Below, piece by piece: positions 51,301 to 64,000 of a stretch of DNA of 64,000 bases. Both the position numbers and the translations under genes were made by a program. Below the pieces are notes generated by a model. The model did no database searches, was not told the DNA's origin, and saw nothing but the letters and a program-made list of their open reading frames with translations. The DNA comes from Methanomassiliicoccales archaeon LGM-DZ1. GTDB lineage: Archaea > Thermoplasmatota > Thermoplasmata > Methanomassiliicoccales > Methanomethylophilaceae. The stretch spans positions 1,426,001-1,490,000 of the forward strand of contig CP115556.1 of assembly GCA_030168595.1 (NCBI GenBank), read 5' to 3'. Each line of letters opens with the position of its first letter. Within the stretch, counting starts at the first letter, position 1.

Positions 51301-53241
51301 GTGCATATGGAAGAGCGGCCGGCGCTGGTTTCCCGTGACGGGAGGTACCACACGGACCTGCTGAGCGTGCCGCTCTACGGCAGGAGGTTCGGCAGGGTCC
51401 TGCCGTTCTCGGAGGGGCTGTCGGCCGTCAGGGACGGGGCCTCCGCGTACCACATCGGATACGATGGGGAGCCCGCCTACAGTGCCAGATTCCTCGATGC
51501 ATACTCCTTCTTCGAGGGTCTGGCCGCCGTCAGGGATGGTTCGGGCTGGTTCCATATCCGGAAGGACGGCTCGCCCGCGTATCGGATGAGGTTCCGCTGG
51601 TGCGGGAGCTTCAGGGAGGGGATGTGCGCCGTCCGGAAGGAGGGCGGGAGGTACGCGTTCCTCGATCAGGGATTCAATGTCTCAGGGGATTTTCTTTGGG
51701 CGGGGGATTACTCGGAAGGTTATGCTCCGGTAATCTCCGCGGACGGGAAGGCGTTCCACGTCCGGAAGGACGGGGAGCCCCTCTACTCAGAGAGGTTCCT
51801 GGAGTGCGGGGATTTCCATGAGGGGATGGCTCCGGTCAGGGACGGCAGGGGATGGTTCAGGATCGACGCCTCCGGGAAGGAGATCGACCGGGAGCGTTAC
51901 GGCAGCATCGTCTGCAAGGGCTGCGGGGAATGGAGGGCGGTCCGCGGGAAGGAGGCGCTGCTGCTGGCAGGCGGGAGAGTACATCATCTTCTTGACCTGC
52001 CCGGGAGAACCTCCCCGACGTACAGCGGCGATCCCTGGTGGTTCTCCGACATCTCCGGGATGCGCTGGGACTCCTGCGTGCTGGTCATGAGGCACTCGGC
52101 CAGGGACCGTTTCTCCCGCGCCGACTTCCAGATCCACTCCCCGTCCCTGAACGCGCAGGGGGAGTCGCTGGCGCGCGCCGCCGGCAGGGCCGTGAGGAAG
52201 GCGCTGGAGTATCACGGCTGCCGCCTCGAGGTGTTCTCCAGCCCGGTGCAGAGGTGCATGCAGACGGCAGGGTTCATCTCGGACGAATGCGGCGGCCCGG
52301 GCCCGGTGCCGTCGGAGGTCCTCGGGGAGCCCGGGACGCCGTTCGTGTCCGATGAGACCGCCGTCGAGCAGACATGGAAGGATTACCCCGTGTCCGAGAT
52401 CACCTTCTGCGACCTCGCGGGCGCAGGCACGCCCGGGCTGTTCCCTCCTGAGAAGAACGCCGAGCTCCTGCTGAAGGCGCTGAGGCCGAAGCTGGAGGAG
52501 GGCGGGCTGCTGACCGTGTGCGTGACCCACGACCTGTACCTGATGAGGGTCATCGGCTACCTCGCGGGGAGGTACCCGGACGACACCTGGGCGGATTTCT
52601 GCGAGGGGTTCATGCTCATCAGGCGCGGGAAGGAGGAGCTCTTCGTTTGGAAGGGGAAGGAATACCCGCTGCCGGACAGGTTCCCGCGGAAGGAGATCGA
52701 CACGGCGCCGCTGTGGAGAAGGAAAGAGCTCCCTTCCGAAGCATCTGGATCGTATGATCTCGGAGAAGGCATGAGGTTCGAGGGCGGATGGATCCTCGAT
52801 GCCTCCGGGAGGAGGATCGGCGGGCCGTACGCCTGGGCCGGGAAGGCGGAGAACGGCATGGTGCCGTTCCGGCGGGAGGACGGCAGCTGCGGGCACATCG
52901 GGGACAATGGGATGCAGCCGTACCGGTTCAGGTTCGATGATGCCGATCCCTTCTCGGGGACGGCGGCGCCGGTATGGAAGGACGGCCTCGGGTGCACGTT
53001 CATCTCCGACGCGGGAGAACTGCTGCTGGATGACTGGCACATCGAATGCAGGCCTTACTCTGAGGGATATGCGGCCGCCAGGGATGCGGACGGGTGGCAC
53101 CACATCGATGCTTACGGGAGGCCGCTGTACTCCGAGAGGTATGATGAAGCGGGGGAGTTCAGGAACGGGGAAGCGCTGTGCAGGGACGCCGGCGGGGATC
53201 TGTGGCTGGCAGACTCCGAAGGCAGAAGGACAAGACTGTAA
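51301..53241 (+). CDS. WG-repeat protein with embedded histidine-phosphatase domain
   Basis: A 646-residue protein in three parts. Residues 1-240 are WG (KWG-type) beta repeats, for example EGLAAVRDGSGWFHIRKDG and EGMAPVRDGRGWFRIDASG. Residues about 258-430 look like a phosphoglycerate-mutase/histidine-phosphatase domain: CVLVMRHSARDRF supplies the catalytic RH, SSPVQRCMQTAGFI the second arginine, and VCVTHDLYLMRVIGY the last histidine. Residues about 475-640 return to WG repeats. There is no signal peptide. Insertion of an enzyme between two halves of a repeat array is unusual. The substrate is unknown. Confidence 0.78.
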   Translation: MHMEERPALVSRDGRYHTDLLSVPLYGRRFGRVLPFSEGLSAVRDGASAYHIGYDGEPAYSARFLDAYSFFEGLAAVRDGSGWFHIRKDGSPAYRMRFRWCGSFREGMCAVRKEGGRYAFLDQGFNVSGDFLWAGDYSEGYAPVISADGKAFHVRKDGEPLYSERFLECGDFHEGMAPVRDGRGWFRIDASGKEIDRERYGSIVCKGCGEWRAVRGKEALLLAGGRVHHLLDLPGRTSPTYSGDPWWFSDISGMRWDSCVLVMRHSARDRFSRADFQIHSPSLNAQGESLARAAGRAVRKALEYHGCRLEVFSSPVQRCMQTAGFISDECGGPGPVPSEVLGEPGTPFVSDETAVEQTWKDYPVSEITFCDLAGAGTPGLFPPEKNAELLLKALRPKLEEGGLLTVCVTHDLYLMRVIGYLAGRYPDDTWADFCEGFMLIRRGKEELFVWKGKEYPLPDRFPRKEIDTAPLWRRKELPSEASGSYDLGEGMRFEGGWILDASGRRIGGPYAWAGKAENGMVPFRREDGSCGHIGDNGMQPYRFRFDDADPFSGTAAPVWKDGLGCTFISDAGELLLDDWHIECRPYSEGYAAARDADGWHHIDAYGRPLYSERYDEAGEFRNGEALCRDAGGDLWLADSEGRRTRL

Positions 53242-55524: not shown

Positions 55525-56453
55525 TTGATGAGAATAAAGGACGAAACCCGACCGTCATCCCAGTCAAAGAGGCAGGTGGGATGCGAGAAGGATTTGATGT
55601 CCGAGCTCATAAAGGTCTGGGATTCCCCGGACCGGGTGATGATCCACGGCGGCACGGTTTACTCGGTCATCGAGACCGAGACCGCCATAGTGCGGAAGGC
55701 GTCCGGCAGCCGGAATCTCGGCGATCTGGATGACCCAGACGGCGAGTGGGAGATCATGCTCCCCAGGGACCCCCGCTTCGCGGAGGTCCCGGAGAGCATG
55801 AGGATGAAGGCGTGCGCCTGCTACGATGCCAAGAGCGCAGCAGAGGAGCGCGACAAGATGCAGAAGGCGCTCAAGGGCATCGAGGCGAAGCTCAGGGCGA
55901 CGGACCCCTGGGCGGCCGTGAACAGCCTGAAGGGCATCGCGGCGGCTATGCCGAGTTCTTCGACCTGAAGGCCGAGGGCGGGAAACTGATCATCGGGAGG
56001 AAGCGCAACGCCGTATCGTTCGCGATGAACCGCGAGGGCATGTTCGTGATGTTCTCCTACGGCGTGGGATCGTGGGAGGAGATGATATCCGACTACGACT
56101 GCCGGGCCTATGTGGAGCAGGCGTTCCACGTCCTCAAGAACGACCTGGACGGCGGGCGCTGGCGCACCGCCGACCCTCAGACGGCCAGGGGCCGCCTGGC
56201 GGTCAAGTTCGTAGCGCTGATACTCTGGTTCACCCTGTCGGGGAAACTGCGGGACGCGGAAGGAAGGGTCCCGGTGCAGTCGGCGCTGCAGTCCCTGGAC
56301 ACGGCGATGGCGATAGGGGACGGCAGGAAGTGGAGGGTGACCGAGATCACGGCCAGGAGCCGCAGGCTCCTGGCGACCCTCGGCGTCCCGATGCCGGGGA
56401 GGATCGTCGAGACGGAGCCTTATGACTTCATCCCGAAGAAGTACCTAGATTGA
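55525..56453 (+). pseudogene. Degenerate IS4/IS1634-type transposase
   Basis: Two frames together give the C-terminal half of a DDE transposase. The first (55525-about 55945) encodes the region ending LRATDPWAAVNSLKGIAA. A frameshift near 55945 passes to a second frame (to 56453) that continues YAEFFDLKAEGGKLIIGRKRNAVSF. The catalytic Y-2-R-3-E-6-K motif of the IS4 superfamily is intact in YDCRAYVEQAFHVLKNDL (about 56095-56147). The N-terminal half with the two aspartates is missing, so the gene cannot be active. It marks the left edge of the AT-rich island. Confidence 0.8.
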
Positions 56454-56626: not shown

Positions 56627-57727
56627 TCAATCAATCTTAGTCAAATCATGGTTGTATTTTTTAGAGTCAGGCACACGCACTTTATAATTTTTAATCTCTT
56701 TTTTCGATTTCAAACTCTTCATCATCTCGAGACCGACATAGTAAACAACATCTATCGCCACGGAGTTTCCGAAAAGTTTGTATGCGTATGTTTTTGAGAC
56801 ATCGATTTTGAAATCATCAGGAAATCCCTGAATTCTTGCAAATTCTCTAGGCGTCAGGGCCCTTATATTCTCGCTGTTGATCGGAGTTTTCCTGTGTGTT
56901 TTGGTTGTCCGGTCATTGCCGATTTTATCATCACGGATAAGATTTCTTTCTCTTCCCATACCGCCGCCCATCAGTGTATTGGGAATGTCGCCTGGTTTCA
57001 AAATACAATAGCCGAAACCGCGGCCTTCCTCATGCTGTTTTTTCTTATGATTTTTCAGACAATCTAGATATCCTTGTGACAGATAATATTCGTTCGGAAC
57101 CCTGACAGCAGTCATAACCGATTCCAGAGTTTTCTTGTCTTCCTCATTCGGAGTCGTCGGTTTCGGATAATCGAATTTATCTATTCCTAAATCCTCTCTA
57201 AAACCTACGATGTAAATCCTCTTCCTTTTCTGTGGAACCCCGTAATCCGAAGCATCCAAGATTTGAGGATCTGGTACATAATAACCTAATTTATTCAGGC
57301 GGCTCAGAATGTGTTCCAGGGTTTTTCCTTTATCCTGAGAGACAAGGCCTACCACGTTCTCGAGCAGGAAAGCTTTCGGTTTACATATTCCTAAGATTTT
57401 ATCAATATAGTCGAAGAGTTTTCCCCGATCGTCCTTAAACCCATTTCTTTTTCCAGCCATGGAAAAGGCCTGACAGGGGAACCCTCCAACAAGGATGTCG
57501 AACTCGCCTAATTCTTTCTTAACTTGATCGGTTTTTTCCCACGGCAGTTTTGTAATATCTCCGTAGAGTTTGGGCTCGTCTCCGAAATTATCTTCGTAAA
57601 CTTTTGCAGCATTCGGCTCTATTTCCGAAGCGAATACGCATTTTCCGCCGAGATCCTCCATGGCCATGCGCATCCCGCCAATTCCTGCGAAAAGGTCGAT
57701 GAATCTGAAGTCGGGACTGTCTGCCAT
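56627..57727 (-). CDS. DNA (cytosine-5)-methyltransferase
   Basis: A 366-residue C5 methyltransferase with all main motifs: I FIDLFAGIGGMRMA (residues 9-22), IV with the catalytic Cys85 in GGFPCQAFSMAGKR, VI ENVVGL (from residue 123), VIII QKRKRIYIVGF, and a C-terminal GNSVAIDVV motif X. The target recognition region between VIII and IX (about 200-290) is short and includes the segment LMGGGMGRERNLIRDD. It is the last gene of the six-gene operon and supplies the modification activity. Its start lies inside the 3' end of the preceding gene (109-base overlap), and motif I so close to the N-terminus rules out a much later start. AT-rich. Confidence 0.94.
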   Translation of the reverse strand: MADSPDFRFIDLFAGIGGMRMAMEDLGGKCVFASEIEPNAAKVYEDNFGDEPKLYGDITKLPWEKTDQVKKELGEFDILVGGFPCQAFSMAGKRNGFKDDRGKLFDYIDKILGICKPKAFLLENVVGLVSQDKGKTLEHILSRLNKLGYYVPDPQILDASDYGVPQKRKRIYIVGFREDLGIDKFDYPKPTTPNEEDKKTLESVMTAVRVPNEYYLSQGYLDCLKNHKKKQHEEGRGFGYCILKPGDIPNTLMGGGMGRERNLIRDDKIGNDRTTKTHRKTPINSENIRALTPREFARIQGFPDDFKIDVSKTYAYKLFGNSVAIDVVYYVGLEMMKSLKSKKEIKNYKVRVPDSKKYNHDLTKID

Positions 57728-58749
57728 GAATCACTTTCCTCACATACCGCAATGCTATTAATTCGTTGCTTATGATTTAAATCGAGTACATGGGACGTTT
57801 TGAGTCCTGATAAATCAATCTCGTAACTGATTTTTCCGATATTCTTCGGCTTCTTTCCGTCGACGAACGCCTTGGTAATGTCAGGGAAATCTTCGTCAAC
57901 TGGGAATACTTTCTCTTCAATCAGATTGTAAGCAAGTTTGTGTTCGCTGCTGTTTTTCACATTCAGTTTGTTTTCAATTTTGGAACAAAGATCATCTTTG
58001 CTGAATCCCAGGTTGACGAGACTGCTTACTACACTCTTTAAAGTCAGGTTACCGGTAGGCGTTGACTCGAACCTATAGAAAACTAGTGTCCCCGCCTTCA
58101 TTACCTGATATTCTTCCGAAACGATAATCGACATCCCGCTGCGTTGAATTGTCGATTTAACTTCGAAATTCAGATTTTGAGTTCCGTTGGAGGCTATAAC
58201 ATCATTGATGTCGCCGTCTGGACCTACCCAAATGATATTCTGATATCCTTTGATTTTCAATTCTTTAAGGAGAAGAAGTTCTCCGATGATTTGATACGTT
58301 CTAGAATGCTTTTGTTTGTTTCCCACCAGTTTTTTCCAATTATCCGCCCATTCATCTGGATTGGCGATGTTGTTTTCCAGTGTCCCCGAACTGGGAAAGA
58401 GGAAAGATTCGCATACGCAGAGGAAGGAATTCTTCACATACCTTTCATTGCGGCAGCATAACATCAATCCCGAATGAACGGATCCGCTGAAGGAAATCTG
58501 CTCCGAATGTATCGACATACCGGAGAATTCCTCGTTGAAATCCTTATCTCCCGTACTGCATTCAATCAGGAAGCCTATTGTGCTGGAATTGTAGATTCCG
58601 AATAGAGCATGACCTCCGACAGTATTCTCAAACGGGTAATCCTTGCCTTTCACCGCATCAACAAGGAATGAATCCAGTTCACTCATTATCTTTGAACGGA
58701 CATCCTCTAATCCAATCTCGTCATCGGAGATAATTGCTTTCTTGTTCAT
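57619..58749 (-). CDS. PD-(D/E)XK-motif protein (DUF4420)
   Basis: A 376-residue protein of the DUF4420 family, known from restriction-modification and defence loci. The nuclease-like core is visible: E157 in IIGELLLLKEL, an acidic turn GDINDV (D180-D183) and E196-x-K198 in LNFEVKST. It is the predicted endonuclease of the system. The start at 58749 overlaps the preceding stop by 4 bases. The last 36 or so codons overlap the methyltransferase gene in another frame; family members usually need no such tail, so an earlier stop may have been lost. Confidence 0.85.
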   Translation of the reverse strand: MNKKAIISDDEIGLEDVRSKIMSELDSFLVDAVKGKDYPFENTVGGHALFGIYNSSTIGFLIECSTGDKDFNEEFSGMSIHSEQISFSGSVHSGLMLCCRNERYVKNSFLCVCESFLFPSSGTLENNIANPDEWADNWKKLVGNKQKHSRTYQIIGELLLLKELKIKGYQNIIWVGPDGDINDVIASNGTQNLNFEVKSTIQRSGMSIIVSEEYQVMKAGTLVFYRFESTPTGNLTLKSVVSSLVNLGFSKDDLCSKIENKLNVKNSSEHKLAYNLIEEKVFPVDEDFPDITKAFVDGKKPKNIGKISYEIDLSGLKTSHVLDLNHKQRINSIAVCEESDSWQTVPTSDSSTFSQELAGCAWPWRISAENAYSLRK

Positions 58750-59507
58750 TTGCTCACTTCCTGAAACAGCTGTGAAACATATTCTGAGACTCCCCCGCTC
58801 ATAAGTTCGGGCTCGGTTATCTGCATCCGGGCGATGTTAAGGTGGAGGACCCGACTCAGTAGATTGCCCGGCGCCATATCCTGCCTCATCATTCCAGAGT
58901 AATGGGTGATTATCTCATTGTATACTACAATTGGATACCCCTCACGTCCCGAACGCTCAACAATCTGGGAGATGTCGTCCGACTGATTGTACCTCAAAAG
59001 CTTCACCGTAGCGACCAGGTCGGCATCGAATCCCTCTCCTGTGTTCTGCCAGCTGAGGTAGAGATACCACCAGAGCATCTTACCGTAATATCTGCGTCTG
59101 TTGGCATAGAACCTATCAGGATTAAGCCCCGCTTTCCCGTCTTTCGTATAATAGGGAAAACGATCCATGATAATATCTGGAATGACAAATCTGTTTATAT
59201 ATAGCCAGATTTCATCATCGGAAGCATCGCGAACAGTGAATCCGTTTCTGTTGAGGATGCTCATGAACGTCCCCGCCATCTCTAGGTCCATGCCGTATTG
59301 CTGAGAATGGGCAAAGTAACTCCTGGTTGTGATCTTCTCTTTACAGACGTCGTACGCTTTTTTGATGTCGCTGCGGATTTCAGAATATTCGGCAGGGATT
59401 TCCGGATTCCTGATCAGTTCGATATTTTCATCATAGTACTCAGAATCCGAGTTCATCCGATTGACGAAATTCTTCATCTGGACCATTTTGTAGCGGCCCC
59501 AGTTCAT
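58746..59507 (-). CDS. Restriction-system-associated protein of unknown function
   Basis: A 253-residue, mainly alpha-helical protein rich in Tyr/Arg/Trp (FYANRRRYYGKMLWWYLYLSWQNTGEGF). It may belong to the DUF6339 type found in similar loci, but I hold that assignment loosely. No nuclease or ATPase motif is seen. It overlaps the DUF4420 start by 4 bases and follows the 337-residue gene by 24 bases, so it is firmly within the operon. A DNA-recognition or assembly role is a guess. Confidence 0.65.
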   Translation of the reverse strand: MNWGRYKMVQMKNFVNRMNSDSEYYDENIELIRNPEIPAEYSEIRSDIKKAYDVCKEKITTRSYFAHSQQYGMDLEMAGTFMSILNRNGFTVRDASDDEIWLYINRFVIPDIIMDRFPYYTKDGKAGLNPDRFYANRRRYYGKMLWWYLYLSWQNTGEGFDADLVATVKLLRYNQSDDISQIVERSGREGYPIVVYNEIITHYSGMMRQDMAPGNLLSRVLHLNIARMQITEPELMSGGVSEYVSQLFQEVSK

Positions 59508-59531
59508 CTTTTCATCTCCGAATACAACTTG

Positions 59532-60545
59532 TTACGTATCTTTTCGGAAAGATAGATTGCATTGTTCCCGTCTGTTTTGAAGTTCTTCAGCATTAACCAA
59601 CATTCGGAAAGACTGTTGCTTCCCGACCCTGTCGGGATTTTGATTCAGTTTCAGCATATAACCAACATAAAGTGAAACACTGTCGGGTTCGACCCTGTCG
59701 GGATTCAGATTCAGGATTTCCTTCCATGATGCTTCATCCATCTCTGATTTCACTTTCTCTATTATTTGTAAAATCGCTTCGGCATAGATTTCCGACAGAG
59801 CCCATCTGTCTCCGCTTTTGCGTTCTGGATTGAGGCTTTCGAATCTTTGATGATTTGAATTCAGAAACAGGCACACACTGTCATTGAAACTGTCTTTGAA
59901 CGGATCCGTCCATTCTGTTTCCAGTTTCCAGAGGAGATGGCTCTTCGAACTCTCGAAGGGAATCACCCGAGTCGGGAAATCATTAGGCTCTTTGTCCAGC
60001 ATTACCGTGATGGGGACCCCGACATGTGCCAGAACTGTTCCTTCCATGTCTGCGTAGCCGGGGAGGACCGAATCTTCCCTCGTCTTCTTCAGATATAAGA
60101 TGAACCTCATTGTAAATGAATCAAGAACCGTCTTAGGAGGTATTCTGAAGGAAAATGCCAATTCCGACCGTTCCTGCATTTCAGAGATCGATCCATCGAA
60201 GTGGATTGTTCTGCGCAGCGATGTTTTGATTGACGATATCACTGCTGCCACACCCAGTTCCGTTCCCGGTCCAGCTATTCCTGATTTTTTATCGAAAAAA
60301 ACATTTGGCTTAGAGACCGTGCATTTACAGGAAACGCAGATTTCATCATCCTTAGTCCATTCGCTGTCAGCTCCCGGAAGTTCTATCATATCATCAGTTG
60401 ATTTTTTCGACTTCGATATTTTGAGAATCTTCCCTTCTTTTTCAAACTCGAATTCCGGTTCTGTCAGAATGATCCCAGACCTGTCCAGAAGGACAGGACT
60501 TAGCTGTTTGTAGAAAGAGAATGAAACGTCCGGCATACCTGTCAT
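59532..60545 (-). CDS. Uncharacterised protein of the MutL/Z1 restriction operon
   Basis: A 337-residue protein with a beta-rich N-terminal two-thirds (strands such as VSFSFYKQLSPVLL, FEFEKEGKILKISKSKK, ELAFSFRIPPKTVL) and a helical C-terminus. A short repeated phrase, LNPDRVEPDS and LNQNPDRVGKQ, lies near the end. It has no recognised catalytic motif. It overlaps the MutL-like ATPase stop by 4 bases, implying a stoichiometric partnership. I cannot assign a family. Confidence 0.65.
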   Translation of the reverse strand: MTGMPDVSFSFYKQLSPVLLDRSGIILTEPEFEFEKEGKILKISKSKKSTDDMIELPGADSEWTKDDEICVSCKCTVSKPNVFFDKKSGIAGPGTELGVAAVISSIKTSLRRTIHFDGSISEMQERSELAFSFRIPPKTVLDSFTMRFILYLKKTREDSVLPGYADMEGTVLAHVGVPITVMLDKEPNDFPTRVIPFESSKSHLLWKLETEWTDPFKDSFNDSVCLFLNSNHQRFESLNPERKSGDRWALSEIYAEAILQIIEKVKSEMDEASWKEILNLNPDRVEPDSVSLYVGYMLKLNQNPDRVGKQQSFRMLVNAEELQNRREQCNLSFRKDT

Positions 60546-62527
60546 CTCCTCCCGACAATGCTTATGATTGGCTCAATTGCGAACTCTGAACGGTGGATTT
60601 TGATTTTCAGGTAAATGGTTGCATGCGCATGCTCGGTACATACGAGCACCTCTGTGTTGTTAATCTCCGACCTTGCTTTCGAGACACCATTGCTTCTGAG
60701 AAAATCATTATCCCTATCCCCGCATTCTACGCTGAGAATCTCTGTGCTGAGAACCCAATACGGAAACTCGGTGCCGATGCTTTTTTTCCACTCCGCCTCT
60801 CCTACAAATGAACCGTCATCGCCCTGACCTGCAACTCCAAATTCGATGTTTACAGACTGGTAGGAATTCATATCAACTTCGACTGTCAATATTGTGCAGT
60901 CACAGGCCTGTTCGGTTCCGACAATTTTCAGTGCAGGTTCAGTCTTGATGTTCTTTGTTTTTCTGGAGGTGTTCCCTCCTTCCGAAGCGGGCACTGCACT
61001 CTGCCAGATGGAAAATCCTTCTGGAGGGAACAGAGCTTCTGCAACTCTCCTGCCATAAGTGATTTTTCTGCCGCGTTCCAGATCCCCGTCATCCCCAGCC
61101 AGACTTTCTTTGAGTGATCTGATTACACCTGAACGAATCCTGGAAATCAAATCTCCAATTTCCAGATTTCTTTTGTCTTCCCAATAATAATGGTCAGATT
61201 TCTCACAATCGCGGACGCATTCCTCGATTGTGCGATATTTGCTTCCTGGATATTCTTCGTTCTGATTCAATCTGAATACTGCAATGAGATATTGATTCTC
61301 ATCCGTCTCAGGGATTGATTTGATGAATTTTTCATCATCATACGAATTGAACATCCCAGATTGTCTCACATAAAGGACGATGGGTCTGTTCCCTTTGATT
61401 CCCTCGCGATTGATTCCGCAAACGAGATAGGGGTTGTCGAATGTCTGTCCGCTGATTAAATTTTCTTTCGTTAGGACAGCCCATGCCAGATAGCCGACTT
61501 CAATCAATTTCTTTTTTTTGTTTATTGTCTGGATCGAGATTTTTTTCGATTCAATACGGAAATCCTCAATAGTTCCGCTGATGCCTGGGAATGTATGGTT
61601 ATATATCTGCTGTACGGCTTTGAATGTCGGGAATTCCAGAATCACCGGCTTTCCATTGACCGATGGAAGCAGTAGCGGGGGATCGTGTTTTGTTCCCAAC
61701 ATCCTCGGGCAGTACCACTTTTGGATCTGCATACCAATATACGACTCTACAGAATTGGTCCACCAAGCTTTTCTGGCTTCGACATCATCTTCTGGCCAGG
61801 TTTCCCTCAGCAAGCCTCCGATGTCAACTGATGGAATGATGATTGACGTGCCAGTGTCCTCACCTTCATATGGCCTGAGTCCGAATATATCCAGTATATC
61901 AGAAATTTCCCTTTCATCGGTAATCGGGAGAACATCTGATATTCCTGAGTCTTCGACGACATTGCCCCATAGTGTTATCCCTAGCCAATTTTTCTCTTCG
62001 CAGATGCGAATGTCATCATTGATCCATACGCCAATCAGCCTGGATTCAAAAGCATCTTTAGTTGTGATGCGTGTATAGAAAATCGCCATGCCGCAGCCCA
62101 GGGAATAATAGATTGTTTTCCCTATACCCCAAGAGCCGCCGGATTCTTCGTGTTTCGAACTGTCCATTATCCCTTTGACCAGGTTGATAAAATTGCAGTC
62201 TTCCGGTGACTTTTCAGCATCTTTCATGGCCGTCGGGCCAGTAAGTCCAGTTGTTCCTCTGTCACGTATGCACAGAAAGTCCCCTGTCATTTTCAGAGCA
62301 GCCTGTTCCAGTGAATCGAAATGTGGGACCAATTCGAAGGGAGAGTACTTTCCGATGGTGAAATCTACCTGCACCGGCCCTGATTCTCTGTCGGCGGCAT
62401 CGAGGCTGTTTTGAATGGATTCCCTGACCAACAGTTCTAGTCGTATCCTGTCTCCTGATTGGTTGATGTTTCTGATGGATGATGCTTTCAGAGAATAAAT
62501 CCCTCTTTTCAGGTTGTATGCATCCAC
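60542..62527 (-). CDS. MutL/MORC-like GHKL ATPase
   Basis: A 661-residue protein with a GHKL ATP-binding domain at the N-terminus: N-box ELLVRESIQNSLDAAD (E36, N40), G1 box IRDRGTTGLTG (D89, G91, G94) and G2 box ESGGSWGIGKTIYY (G130-K137). A transducer-like second domain and about 250 C-terminal residues of unknown fold follow. The order and neighbours fit the MutL homologues described in restriction-modification systems and related to eukaryotic MORC ATPases. It probably acts as an ATP-driven clamp that controls the nuclease. AT-rich, with 4-base spacing to the Z1 gene. Confidence 0.85.
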   Translation of the reverse strand: MDAYNLKRGIYSLKASSIRNINQSGDRIRLELLVRESIQNSLDAADRESGPVQVDFTIGKYSPFELVPHFDSLEQAALKMTGDFLCIRDRGTTGLTGPTAMKDAEKSPEDCNFINLVKGIMDSSKHEESGGSWGIGKTIYYSLGCGMAIFYTRITTKDAFESRLIGVWINDDIRICEEKNWLGITLWGNVVEDSGISDVLPITDEREISDILDIFGLRPYEGEDTGTSIIIPSVDIGGLLRETWPEDDVEARKAWWTNSVESYIGMQIQKWYCPRMLGTKHDPPLLLPSVNGKPVILEFPTFKAVQQIYNHTFPGISGTIEDFRIESKKISIQTINKKKKLIEVGYLAWAVLTKENLISGQTFDNPYLVCGINREGIKGNRPIVLYVRQSGMFNSYDDEKFIKSIPETDENQYLIAVFRLNQNEEYPGSKYRTIEECVRDCEKSDHYYWEDKRNLEIGDLISRIRSGVIRSLKESLAGDDGDLERGRKITYGRRVAEALFPPEGFSIWQSAVPASEGGNTSRKTKNIKTEPALKIVGTEQACDCTILTVEVDMNSYQSVNIEFGVAGQGDDGSFVGEAEWKKSIGTEFPYWVLSTEILSVECGDRDNDFLRSNGVSKARSEINNTEVLVCTEHAHATIYLKIKIHRSEFAIEPIISIVGRR

Positions 62528-62531
62528 AGAA

Positions 62532-64000
62532 TCATCTCATAGAATCCAGATACACGTAACCAGTATCCGTTGTATCGACTTCTCTGTCATCCCTTACGCC
62601 TGTCGGAATCAAGACTGTCAGTGTGACCACGTTAGATGGATATTCTTTTTCTTCATCGTTTGCTATGCCTATCAAAAGCAGGGGGGTTTTGTCCCAACCC
62701 GACTCTTTTCTGGCGATGTCTCTTTTGCCGACATCCCCGCTCTGGATGGCATCTTTGAACGTTCTGTTGTTTCCTTTGTTCCAATCAATATCGGCGGTCA
62801 GATGAATTTTATCTCTCACTGTTTTTATTTGTATAAGTTTATCATTGCGAATCTCCGCGCGCCTGTTTACAACATTGACCGTCTTTCCGTTTCCGAGATC
62901 AAAAATAGGATTGCTGAGAGTGACCAATTTATTCTTCCTGCCGGCAAGTACGATGTTGAAATCTTTGATTATTGAACGATCAATCATGCGCAACCAATGG
63001 AAACAACATTCTCCTGATTTTACATTCACTGGACCCGAGTCCGAATCGCCCTTCCTAAAGTCTGCCAAATAGTCCAATACTGCATTTTTATCTACCCCTC
63101 TGTAAAGGAGAACGGCGCCATCCATTGCCGGAGTGATTGAGGATTCAGAAATTCCGTTGAGAAGTTTTCTGGTTATCTCCAGATTATAGTCCAGGGATTC
63201 TTTGTCGCCGCGATATTTGCTGATTGACTTATCGAGTCCGTTTCCGAAAGACACTTTGATTCTAGTGTGCGCGGCGTTCTGCATTTTGTTTCTGGATGTC
63301 AAAGACTTCAGCATATGCGCCTCGGGAACGTCTTTTATTCTCACTGCAAACTCTCTGGGGGATATCGATTCGCGGCTGTGTTCAACAATCTCCGCCCTCA
63401 GGGAATCGTTGATGTCGTTCAGATCTTCATATGAAGTTATGGCCGTTCTGTCCATCCAGATTCTCGGCAGAAGCTCATACCCTTTCCTAAAGCCAAACCA
63501 TCTGGCCATCTGAAGGAGAGTATCGGCCTGTTTCACTGTCCTCCTGAAATATGAAACCACCAGTCCTTCGATGGTTAATCCACGGGACAGTGTATTCCCC
63601 CCTATTACGATAAATGCGGGGGCATACTCTTCCACCTTATCTTTTTCGCTCGGATACACTATCCGAATGGTAAAATTGATTTCATTCCTGATTGGGTCGC
63701 TGTTTTTCGATGAGTTATCGACACATATGTGAATCTGTCTTGTATAAGTGTTGATTTTTTGTCCCGTTTCCTCGTCCTGAACAAAGTTGATGCGAGTAGG
63801 ATCGGAATCGATGAGATAATCTATTTCAGACTTAATTCTCTCGAATTTCGGATAATCTCTGATCTCTGCGGTTGAATTATCATCTTCAGAATTTTCGATA
63901 CCGTAATCGGGGACGCATTCTCTGAATGATTCGGGAGTCAGTGCTTTTGTCTGTATCTCATACTGTTCTCTGCAGAGGCTGCGGAGCTCGTCCTTGCAAT
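62532..64000 (-). CDS. Z1-domain protein (partial at the window edge)
   Basis: The frame is open to the right edge, so the N-terminal part, which in this family carries the SF2 helicase-type ATPase, lies outside. About 489 residues are visible. The Z1 signature is clear: FIVIGGNTLSRGLTIEGLVVSYFRR, followed by QADTLLQMARWFGFRKGYELLPRIWM. Z1 proteins are predicted DNA translocases or helicases linked to restriction. The 3' end is 4 bases from the start of the MutL-like ATPase. It is the most upstream visible gene of the operon. Confidence 0.85.
   Translation of the reverse strand, partial: CKDELRSLCREQYEIQTKALTPESFRECVPDYGIENSEDDNSTAEIRDYPKFERIKSEIDYLIDSDPTRINFVQDEETGQKINTYTRQIHICVDNSSKNSDPIRNEINFTIRIVYPSEKDKVEEYAPAFIVIGGNTLSRGLTIEGLVVSYFRRTVKQADTLLQMARWFGFRKGYELLPRIWMDRTAITSYEDLNDINDSLRAEIVEHSRESISPREFAVRIKDVPEAHMLKSLTSRNKMQNAAHTRIKVSFGNGLDKSISKYRGDKESLDYNLEITRKLLNGISESSITPAMDGAVLLYRGVDKNAVLDYLADFRKGDSDSGPVNVKSGECCFHWLRMIDRSIIKDFNIVLAGRKNKLVTLSNPIFDLGNGKTVNVVNRRAEIRNDKLIQIKTVRDKIHLTADIDWNKGNNRTFKDAIQSGDVGKRDIARKESGWDKTPLLLIGIANDEEKEYPSNVVTLTVLIPTGVRDDREVDTTDTGYVYLDSMR

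What the first reader, a model, noticed from the sequence alone, without database searches (positions are those of the whole stretch)
56627..64000. AT-rich six-gene operon combining Z1, MutL/MORC-like ATPase, DUF4420 nuclease and C5 methyltransferase
Six genes run on one strand with 4-base overlaps or very short gaps. They encode a Z1 helicase-like protein, a GHKL ATPase, two unrecognised proteins, a PD-(D/E)XK protein and a complete cytosine methyltransferase. Published comparative work described MutL homologues in restriction-modification systems as relatives of MORC ATPases; this locus fits that class, but as far as I know the mechanism has not been worked out in an archaeon. The strong AT bias against a GC-rich genome points to lateral transfer.
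Basis: partly seen in the sequence, partly recalled or inferred. Interest (0 to 1): 0.85.

Follow-up and report, generated by a model that had tools for sequence, protein, structure and literature searches.

The report
Archaeal six-gene predicted restriction-modification system
A gut-type methanogen carries an intact copy of a predicted but biochemically unstudied six-gene system that probably tags its own DNA and cuts foreign DNA with an ATP-driven motor; the kind was already predicted in bacteria, but comparison of relatives shows that the motor genes stay together while the cutting enzyme can be swapped for one whose mechanism is known.

Summary
Six genes on the minus strand (window 56627 to 65438, past the window end) encode a Z1 helicase, GHKL ATPase, beta-sandwich protein (U337), DUF6339 protein, DUF4420 PD-(D/E)XK nuclease and HhaI-like C5 methyltransferase; Vsr lies beyond an intact ISL3 insertion. 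Catalytic motifs are intact. The same genes recur in the same order in other Methanomethylophilaceae and across Bacillota, Pseudomonadota and Chlorobiota, so this is a conserved system. It is already predicted: the Z1 operon class of Iyer 2008 and 'Type I' of Miller 2022. The GHKL protein is paraMORC2 (ExxxH invariant in 28/28), not MORC (motif absent in 28/28), and matches no Pfam GHKL model. New here: (1) five Bacilli loci hold an NgoFVII/CglI-type PLD nuclease in the DUF4420 slot, so Z1-GHKL-U337-DUF6339 looks like a motor chassis with an exchangeable nuclease, anchored to the characterised CglI/NgoAVII enzymes; (2) another genome of the same species carries a strongly diverged allele at the same site. 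Lateral exchange is supported, but the archaeal copies group together (weakly), so a recent bacterial donor is not shown. Best reading: ATP-dependent multi-subunit restriction-modification, apparently untested. New member of a known kind.

The parts
62532..64000 (-). Z1 (PF10593) SF2 helicase/translocase, first gene of the operon; continues outside the window to window-equivalent 65438 (968 aa in all). Further out: ISL3 element at window-equivalent 65600-66983 with 8-bp target duplication ATTATTTT, then divergent Vsr gene at 67654-68073 (+).
   Evidence: Z1 8e-51; Walker A, DEAD, TAT, motif VI invariant; IS ends and duplication; DTLLQMARWFG motif.
60542..62527 (-). GHKL/Bergerat-fold ATPase of the paraMORC2 family (661 aa)
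   Evidence: N box E36/N40, D89, GGxxGxGK 130-137, TGT 225-227 and E442xxxH446 conserved in 28 relatives; PADLOC PDC-M33A; MORC motif absent.
59532..60545 (-). U337: conserved chassis subunit, Ig-like beta-sandwich plus C-terminal helices, no known family (337 aa)
   Evidence: Relatives at the same place in the operon in 28 loci; AF2 mean pLDDT 86; no convincing PDB match; related to the gene after GHKL in PDC-M33-like loci (hhalign 98.9%).
58746..59507 (-). U253: all-alpha DUF6339-family chassis subunit (253 aa)
   Evidence: 18 of 28 relatives match PF19866 (best 1.6e-7); AF2 mean pLDDT 95; no PDB match.
57619..58749 (-). DUF4420 PD-(D/E)XK nuclease, the predicted cutting subunit (376 aa, with a C-terminal extension overlapping the MTase gene by 109 bases)
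   Evidence: PF14390 4e-16; E157, D183, E196-x-K198 invariant in 21 relatives.
56627..57727 (-). HhaI-like C5-cytosine DNA methyltransferase (366 aa), all catalytic motifs present
   Evidence: PF00145 5e-91, closest solved structure M.HhaI 4e-61, motifs I, IV, VI, VIII, IX, X found.
55746..56453 (+). Remnant of a DDE transposase next to the 3' end of the operon (boundary mobile element)
   Evidence: Weak PF01609 match 0.0067; 69% identical to three further copies in the same genome.

Best explanation
It is an intact ATP-dependent restriction-modification system of the Z1-paraMORC2 kind. The C5 methyltransferase marks a specific sequence in the host genome (inferred from intact motifs). A complex of the Z1 SF2 motor, the paraMORC2 GHKL ATPase clamp, U337 and the DUF6339 protein acts on unmodified target DNA, translocates or loops it at the cost of ATP, and activates the DUF4420 PD-(D/E)XK subunit to cut (inferred by analogy with CglI/NgoAVII, where a Z1-domain ATPase drives a separate nuclease). 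Vsr, on the other side of the intergenic region, repairs the T:G mismatches that deamination of 5mC leaves (inferred from its family). Shown here: gene content, intact catalytic residues, conserved order, nuclease exchange in relatives and allele replacement at the same site. Inferred: the complex, recognition, translocation, cleavage and any effect on viruses.
For: Catalytic residues are invariant in the predicted enzymes. The chassis Z1-GHKL-U337-U253 is found in 28 loci, in this order in nearly all; an MTase is linked in 26, DUF4420 in 21 and Vsr in 19 (loci were selected on U253). In five Bacilli loci the DUF4420 slot holds a PLD nuclease with the NgoFVII N-terminal domain (PF09565, 5e-15 to 3e-20), with the B3-like DNA-binding domain above or near cut-off in three. 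That is the nuclease type of CglI/NgoAVII, which needs a Z1-domain ATPase, cuts only unmodified DNA and is proposed to translocate (PMC4267653, PMC5737866). The same protein families occur in another order in PDC-M33-like loci. The chromosomal site behaves as an exchange site.
Against: No experiment on any member was found. No target-recognition domain was identified outside the methyltransferase. The chassis proteins U337 and U253 have no structural match that suggests a role. The GHKL assignment rests on motifs; profile comparison with Hsp90/MORC-type proteins gave only a weak score (E 0.008, probability 5%), though with the motifs in register. AIPR, present beside three of the other four archaeal copies, is absent from this genome, and the ISL3 insertion 160 bases upstream of Z1 might affect expression.
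Confidence: 0.72

Rival explanations
1. A non-cutting or abortive defence system: the methyltransferase provides self-recognition and the ATPases sense unmodified invading DNA, but the outcome is replication arrest or cell shutdown (as in BREX or AIPR-linked systems) rather than specific restriction.
For: AIPR genes sit beside three other archaeal copies and some bacterial ones; the five-gene MZA system shares Z1, MutL-like and AIPR parts (PMC9523054; composition of MZA partly from my own knowledge).
Against: AIPR is missing from this genome and from most relatives (5 of 28 loci have it); the nuclease residues are invariant, and the nuclease slot is filled by a proven restriction-nuclease type in five relatives.
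Confidence: 0.15
2. A methylation-linked DNA repair module: the GHKL ATPase, Z1 helicase, nuclease and Vsr act on deaminated 5mC as a MutL-like repair path, and defence is secondary.
For: Vsr is linked in 19 of 28 loci; this genome has no MutL by PF01119, so a MutL substitute is conceivable; Iyer 2008 suggested that some paraMORCs were recruited to repair.
Against: Patchy distribution (6 of 390 genomes of the phylum), allele replacement at one site and exchange of the nuclease with its methyltransferase partner are marks of restriction systems, not of housekeeping repair.
Confidence: 0.07
3. A decaying passenger: the operon is silenced by the ISL3 insertion and only the methyltransferase remains active, as an orphan.
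For: IS inserted 160 bases upstream of Z1; the copy in the same-species genome has GHKL in four pieces, Z1 in two and MTase in two.
Against: All six ORFs here are full length with intact catalytic residues, and 160 bases upstream of Z1 are left, enough for an archaeal promoter. The other genome also has a broken flanking gene, so its broken frames may be assembly errors.
Confidence: 0.06

Closest known systems
Z1-helicase operons with paraMORC2 (Iyer, Abhiman and Aravind 2008, PMC2292703)
   Same: Z1 helicase with the DThhQXuRhFG motif, RE-fold nuclease with E-D-ExK, C5 methylase, Vsr, GHKL ATPase with the ExxxH motif.
   Different: No difference in kind found; the two small chassis proteins are not described in the text I could read.
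Type I of the six-gene predicted defence system of Miller et al. 2022 (PMC9523054)
   Same: Z1 protein of about 925 aa, PD-(D/E)XK protein, cytosine methyltransferase, three further genes, association with repair endonucleases.
   Different: That report describes bacteria; this is an archaeon. The identity of their three further genes could not be checked (supplement not available).
CglI and NgoAVII (PMC4267653, PMC5737866)
   Same: C5 methyltransferase plus a separate ATPase with a Z1 domain driving a separate nuclease; in five relatives of this locus even the nuclease family is the same.
   Different: CglI has three genes, no GHKL, U337 or DUF6339 subunit, and a PLD-B3 nuclease instead of DUF4420.
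mzaABCDE (MZA) and PADLOC candidate PDC-M33
   Same: Z1, GHKL and DUF4420-type parts; PDC-M33A matches all 28 GHKL relatives.
   Different: MzaC score 201 against a cut-off of 1500; no AIPR in this genome; gene order in PDC-M33-like loci is Z1-DUF4420-GHKL-U337-U253.

Membership tests
Iyer 2008 Z1/paraMORC operon class | SF2 helicase with C-terminal DThhQXuRhFG motif | tested here: met
   DTLLQMARWFG at residue 639; PF10593 8e-51.
Iyer 2008 Z1/paraMORC operon class | RE-fold nuclease with E-D-ExK | tested here: met
   E157, D183, E196-x-K198 invariant in 21 sequences.
Iyer 2008 Z1/paraMORC operon class | DNA methylase and Vsr in the neighbourhood | tested here: met
   PF00145 and PF03852.
paraMORC2 | GHKL motifs plus conserved ExxxH in the S5 region | tested here: met
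   E442/H446 in 28 of 28; N box, D, GxGK, TGT conserved; the S5 fold itself was not modelled.
MORC | GhXhhpXXRhl motif in the S5 domain | tested here: not met
   Pattern absent in 28 of 28.
Miller 2022 Type I | Z1 of about 925 aa, DUF4420 nuclease, C5 MTase, six genes, repair endonuclease nearby | tested here: met
   description.
Miller 2022 Type I | Homology of the three additional genes to theirs | not testable with these tools
   Their sequences are in supplementary files, which were not available.
mzaABCDE (MZA) | MzaC equivalog score and AIPR present | tested here: not met
   NCBIfam MzaC 201 bits against 1500; no AIPR in the genome.
PDC-M33 (PADLOC) | PDC-M33A and PDC-M33C proteins | tested here: inconclusive
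   GHKL matches M33A at 9e-16; U253 itself does not match M33C, 5 of 28 relatives do.
CglI/NgoAVII | PLD-B3 nuclease | tested here: not met
   This locus has DUF4420; five relatives have the PLD nuclease.
Functional restriction-modification system | Sequence-specific modification and ATP-dependent cleavage | not testable with these tools
   Needs methylation data and biochemistry.

The most novel reading that the evidence does not exclude
The locus belongs to a separate, unrecognised type of ATP-dependent restriction enzyme: a four-subunit motor (Z1 translocase, paraMORC2 clamp, U337, DUF6339) that accepts interchangeable nuclease-methyltransferase pairs (PD-(D/E)XK DUF4420, or PLD-B3 of the CglI kind), with the GHKL clamp doing the looping step that eukaryotic MORC proteins later took over.
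Probability: 0.35. Interest if true: 0.7.

Novelty: new member of a known kind. Interest (0 to 1): 0.45.

Why it matters
The class has been predicted since 2008 without biochemistry that I could find. The nuclease exchange reported here ties it to CglI/NgoAVII, whose assays (site-specific ATP-dependent cleavage, triplex displacement) can be applied directly, and gives a minimal five-protein set to purify. If the paraMORC2 protein proves to clamp or loop DNA in this setting, it would be a prokaryotic model for eukaryotic MORC proteins.

Tried and rejected
MORC membership (motif absent). MZA membership (score and AIPR absent). MutL identity (no PF01119 in the genome; no PDB sequence match for the GHKL profile). 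Structure search for U337 and U253 gave only low TM-score or non-significant matches. The GHKL protein found no match in phage genomes and one partial match in plasmids; a viral-contig scan with the Z1 profile found none. The single-sequence genome-contig scan found nothing; the alignment-based scan worked. An hhalign run for U253 failed on file format, and the line first printed for it was a stale result, so it is not used.
Full report
OBSERVATION. The six ORFs described are present and open on the minus strand of window 56627-64000. The window cuts the first gene: in the whole genome (one contig of 1,768,094 bases) the Z1 ORF is 968 aa and starts at window-equivalent 65438. Gene order 5' to 3' is Z1, GHKL, U337, U253, DUF4420, C5 MTase with junctions of +4, -4, +24, -4 and -109 bases. 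DUF4420 here has a C-terminal tail beyond the family's end that runs through the spacer into the MTase start, while the MTase ATG keeps a GAGG sequence nine bases upstream; in the closest relative the two genes are 9 bases apart. GC is 0.44 in the operon against 0.61 in the rest of the window. Beyond the window lie an intact ISL3 element (1384 bp, 8-bp target duplication ATTATTTT) and a divergent Vsr gene.

IDENTITY OF THE PARTS. Z1: PF10593 8e-51, with Walker A, DEAD, TAT and the DTLLQMARWFG motif. C5 MTase: PF00145 5e-91, closest solved structure M.HhaI, motifs I, IV, VI, VIII, IX and X all found. DUF4420: PF14390 4e-16, with E157, D183 and E196-x-K198 invariant in 21 sequences. GHKL: no Pfam GHKL match in any of 28 relatives and no PDB sequence match, but the N box (E36, N40; a gap in one row), D89, G131/134/136-K137 and T225/T227 are conserved throughout; a comparison with Hsp90 and MORC-type proteins places these motifs in register at a weak score. 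E442 and H446 are invariant: this is the ExxxH signature that Iyer et al. give for paraMORC2. The MORC-specific motif is absent in all 28. U253 belongs with DUF6339 (18 of 28 relatives; the window protein itself is below threshold) and is modelled as an all-alpha protein with pLDDT 95. U337 is modelled as a beta-sandwich with C-terminal helices, pLDDT 86. Neither has a PDB match that suggests a function.

RELATIVES. Within the phylum the GHKL protein is rare: 6 of 390 genomes, four of them (the window's own included) with long matches. The same order, Z1-GHKL-U337-U253-(DUF4420)-MTase with Vsr, stands in three other genomes of the same family at 22-58% protein identity. A scan of GTDB genomes with the Z1 alignment returned 80 bacterial loci. 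Counting the archaeal ones, 28 loci hold the chassis; an MTase is linked in 26, DUF4420 in 21, Vsr in 19 and AIPR in 5. These 28 were chosen by the presence of U253, so that gene's 28/28 is by construction; the co-occurrence of Z1, GHKL and U337 is not (Z1 was the search bait for the bacterial ones). They cover Bacillota, Mycoplasmatota, Pseudomonadota, Chlorobiota and Ignavibacteriae. Two close Z1 relatives in Bacteroidota (L042, L045) lack the chassis, so Z1 alone does not define it. More distant Z1 loci carry the same GHKL (hhalign 100%), U337 (98.9%) and, in some, U253-like genes in the order Z1-DUF4420-GHKL-U337-U253; PADLOC's candidate PDC-M33 models match these proteins.

EXCHANGE OF THE NUCLEASE. 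In five Bacilli loci (L018, L027, L034, L041, L050), which form one clade of the Z1 tree with L025, the gene after U253 is not DUF4420 but a protein with the NgoFVII PLD nuclease domain (5e-15 to 3e-20), with the B3-like DNA-binding domain above cut-off in L018 and L050 and just below it in L034. It is followed by its own C5 MTase. This is the nuclease type of CglI and NgoAVII, in which a DEAD-Z1 ATPase and a PLD-B3 nuclease act together, hydrolyse ATP on unmodified target DNA, are proposed to translocate, and cut at a fixed distance (PMC4267653, PMC5737866). The swap argues that DUF4420 is the cutting subunit here and that Z1 with its partners is the motor. I found no report of this exchange in the papers I could read; a figure in Iyer 2008 may show something similar. 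On the tree it needs only one event.

EXCHANGE OF THE WHOLE LOCUS. A second genome assigned to the same species (G418) matches the left flank at 87-97% up to window 53183 and resumes at 1,502,114 of our contig; between these points it has different DNA. There, in inverted orientation, lies another six-gene allele with 27-45% identity for most proteins (61% for one MTase fragment), a Vsr at 79%, an AIPR gene and a separate PLD nuclease-MTase pair. Several of its genes are broken into pieces, but so is a flanking gene, so assembly error cannot be told from decay. The site is thus an exchange site for diverged systems of one kind. In the Z1 tree the window copy pairs with G154 and the same-species copy with G025 and G387, each at full or near-full support; all five archaeal copies lie on one side of a branch, without significant support (59/75). 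Lateral movement among these archaea is supported; a recent bacterial donor is not.

MECHANISM. The best-supported reading is ATP-dependent restriction-modification: methylation of self by the C5 MTase, ATP-driven scanning or looping by Z1 and paraMORC2 with U337 and DUF6339 as partners, cutting by DUF4420, and Vsr repairing T:G mismatches at deaminated 5mC. The anatomy, intact catalytic sites, conserved order and both exchanges are shown; complex formation, recognition, cutting and effects on viruses are inferred. This genome lacks MutL, so Vsr must act without it or with another partner; that paraMORC2 is this partner is only a suggestion.

NOVELTY. The kind was predicted by Iyer et al. 2008 and again, as Type I, by Miller et al. 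2022. It is not MZA. A 2023 survey of archaeal restriction systems does not contain the word helicase in its main text. I therefore file it as a new archaeal member of a known, untested kind, with the nuclease exchange and the allele exchange as the points worth a specialist's time.

Noticed in passing
Window-equivalent 65600-66983 (L002:13601-14984): Intact ISL3-family insertion element with 48-base terminal inverted repeats and an 8-bp target duplication, between the operon and Vsr.
   Followed up: yes
L139 (G418 contig C50, 56991 down to 37676): The same chromosomal site in a same-species genome holds a different defence island: a diverged six-gene allele, Vsr, AIPR, a transposase and an NgoFVII-type nuclease with its own C5 methyltransferase.
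   Followed up: partly
L003:4152-7606: A NifH-like domain joined to a NifD-like domain in one 717-aa ORF followed by a NifK-like ORF (read by eye from the sequence), between ABC transporter gene sets; a nitrogenase-like cluster of unknown role.
   Followed up: no
L002:16886-18304, L003:621-2027, L003:8893-10236: Three paralogous substrate-binding proteins with an N-terminal dockerin-like calcium-binding repeat (read by eye), each followed by an ABC permease; ATPases nearby.
   Followed up: no
window 51301-53241: A WG-repeat-like protein that also holds a histidine-phosphatase-like (RHG) stretch (read by eye); the corresponding gene is split in the same-species genome.
   Followed up: no
G000:C1:942201-943391: A second, unlinked C5 cytosine methyltransferase of about 430 aa in the genome.
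   Followed up: no
L031 (Chlorobiaceae contig): Two tandem, partly duplicated sets of GHKL-U337-U253-DUF4420 around one Z1 gene.
   Followed up: no
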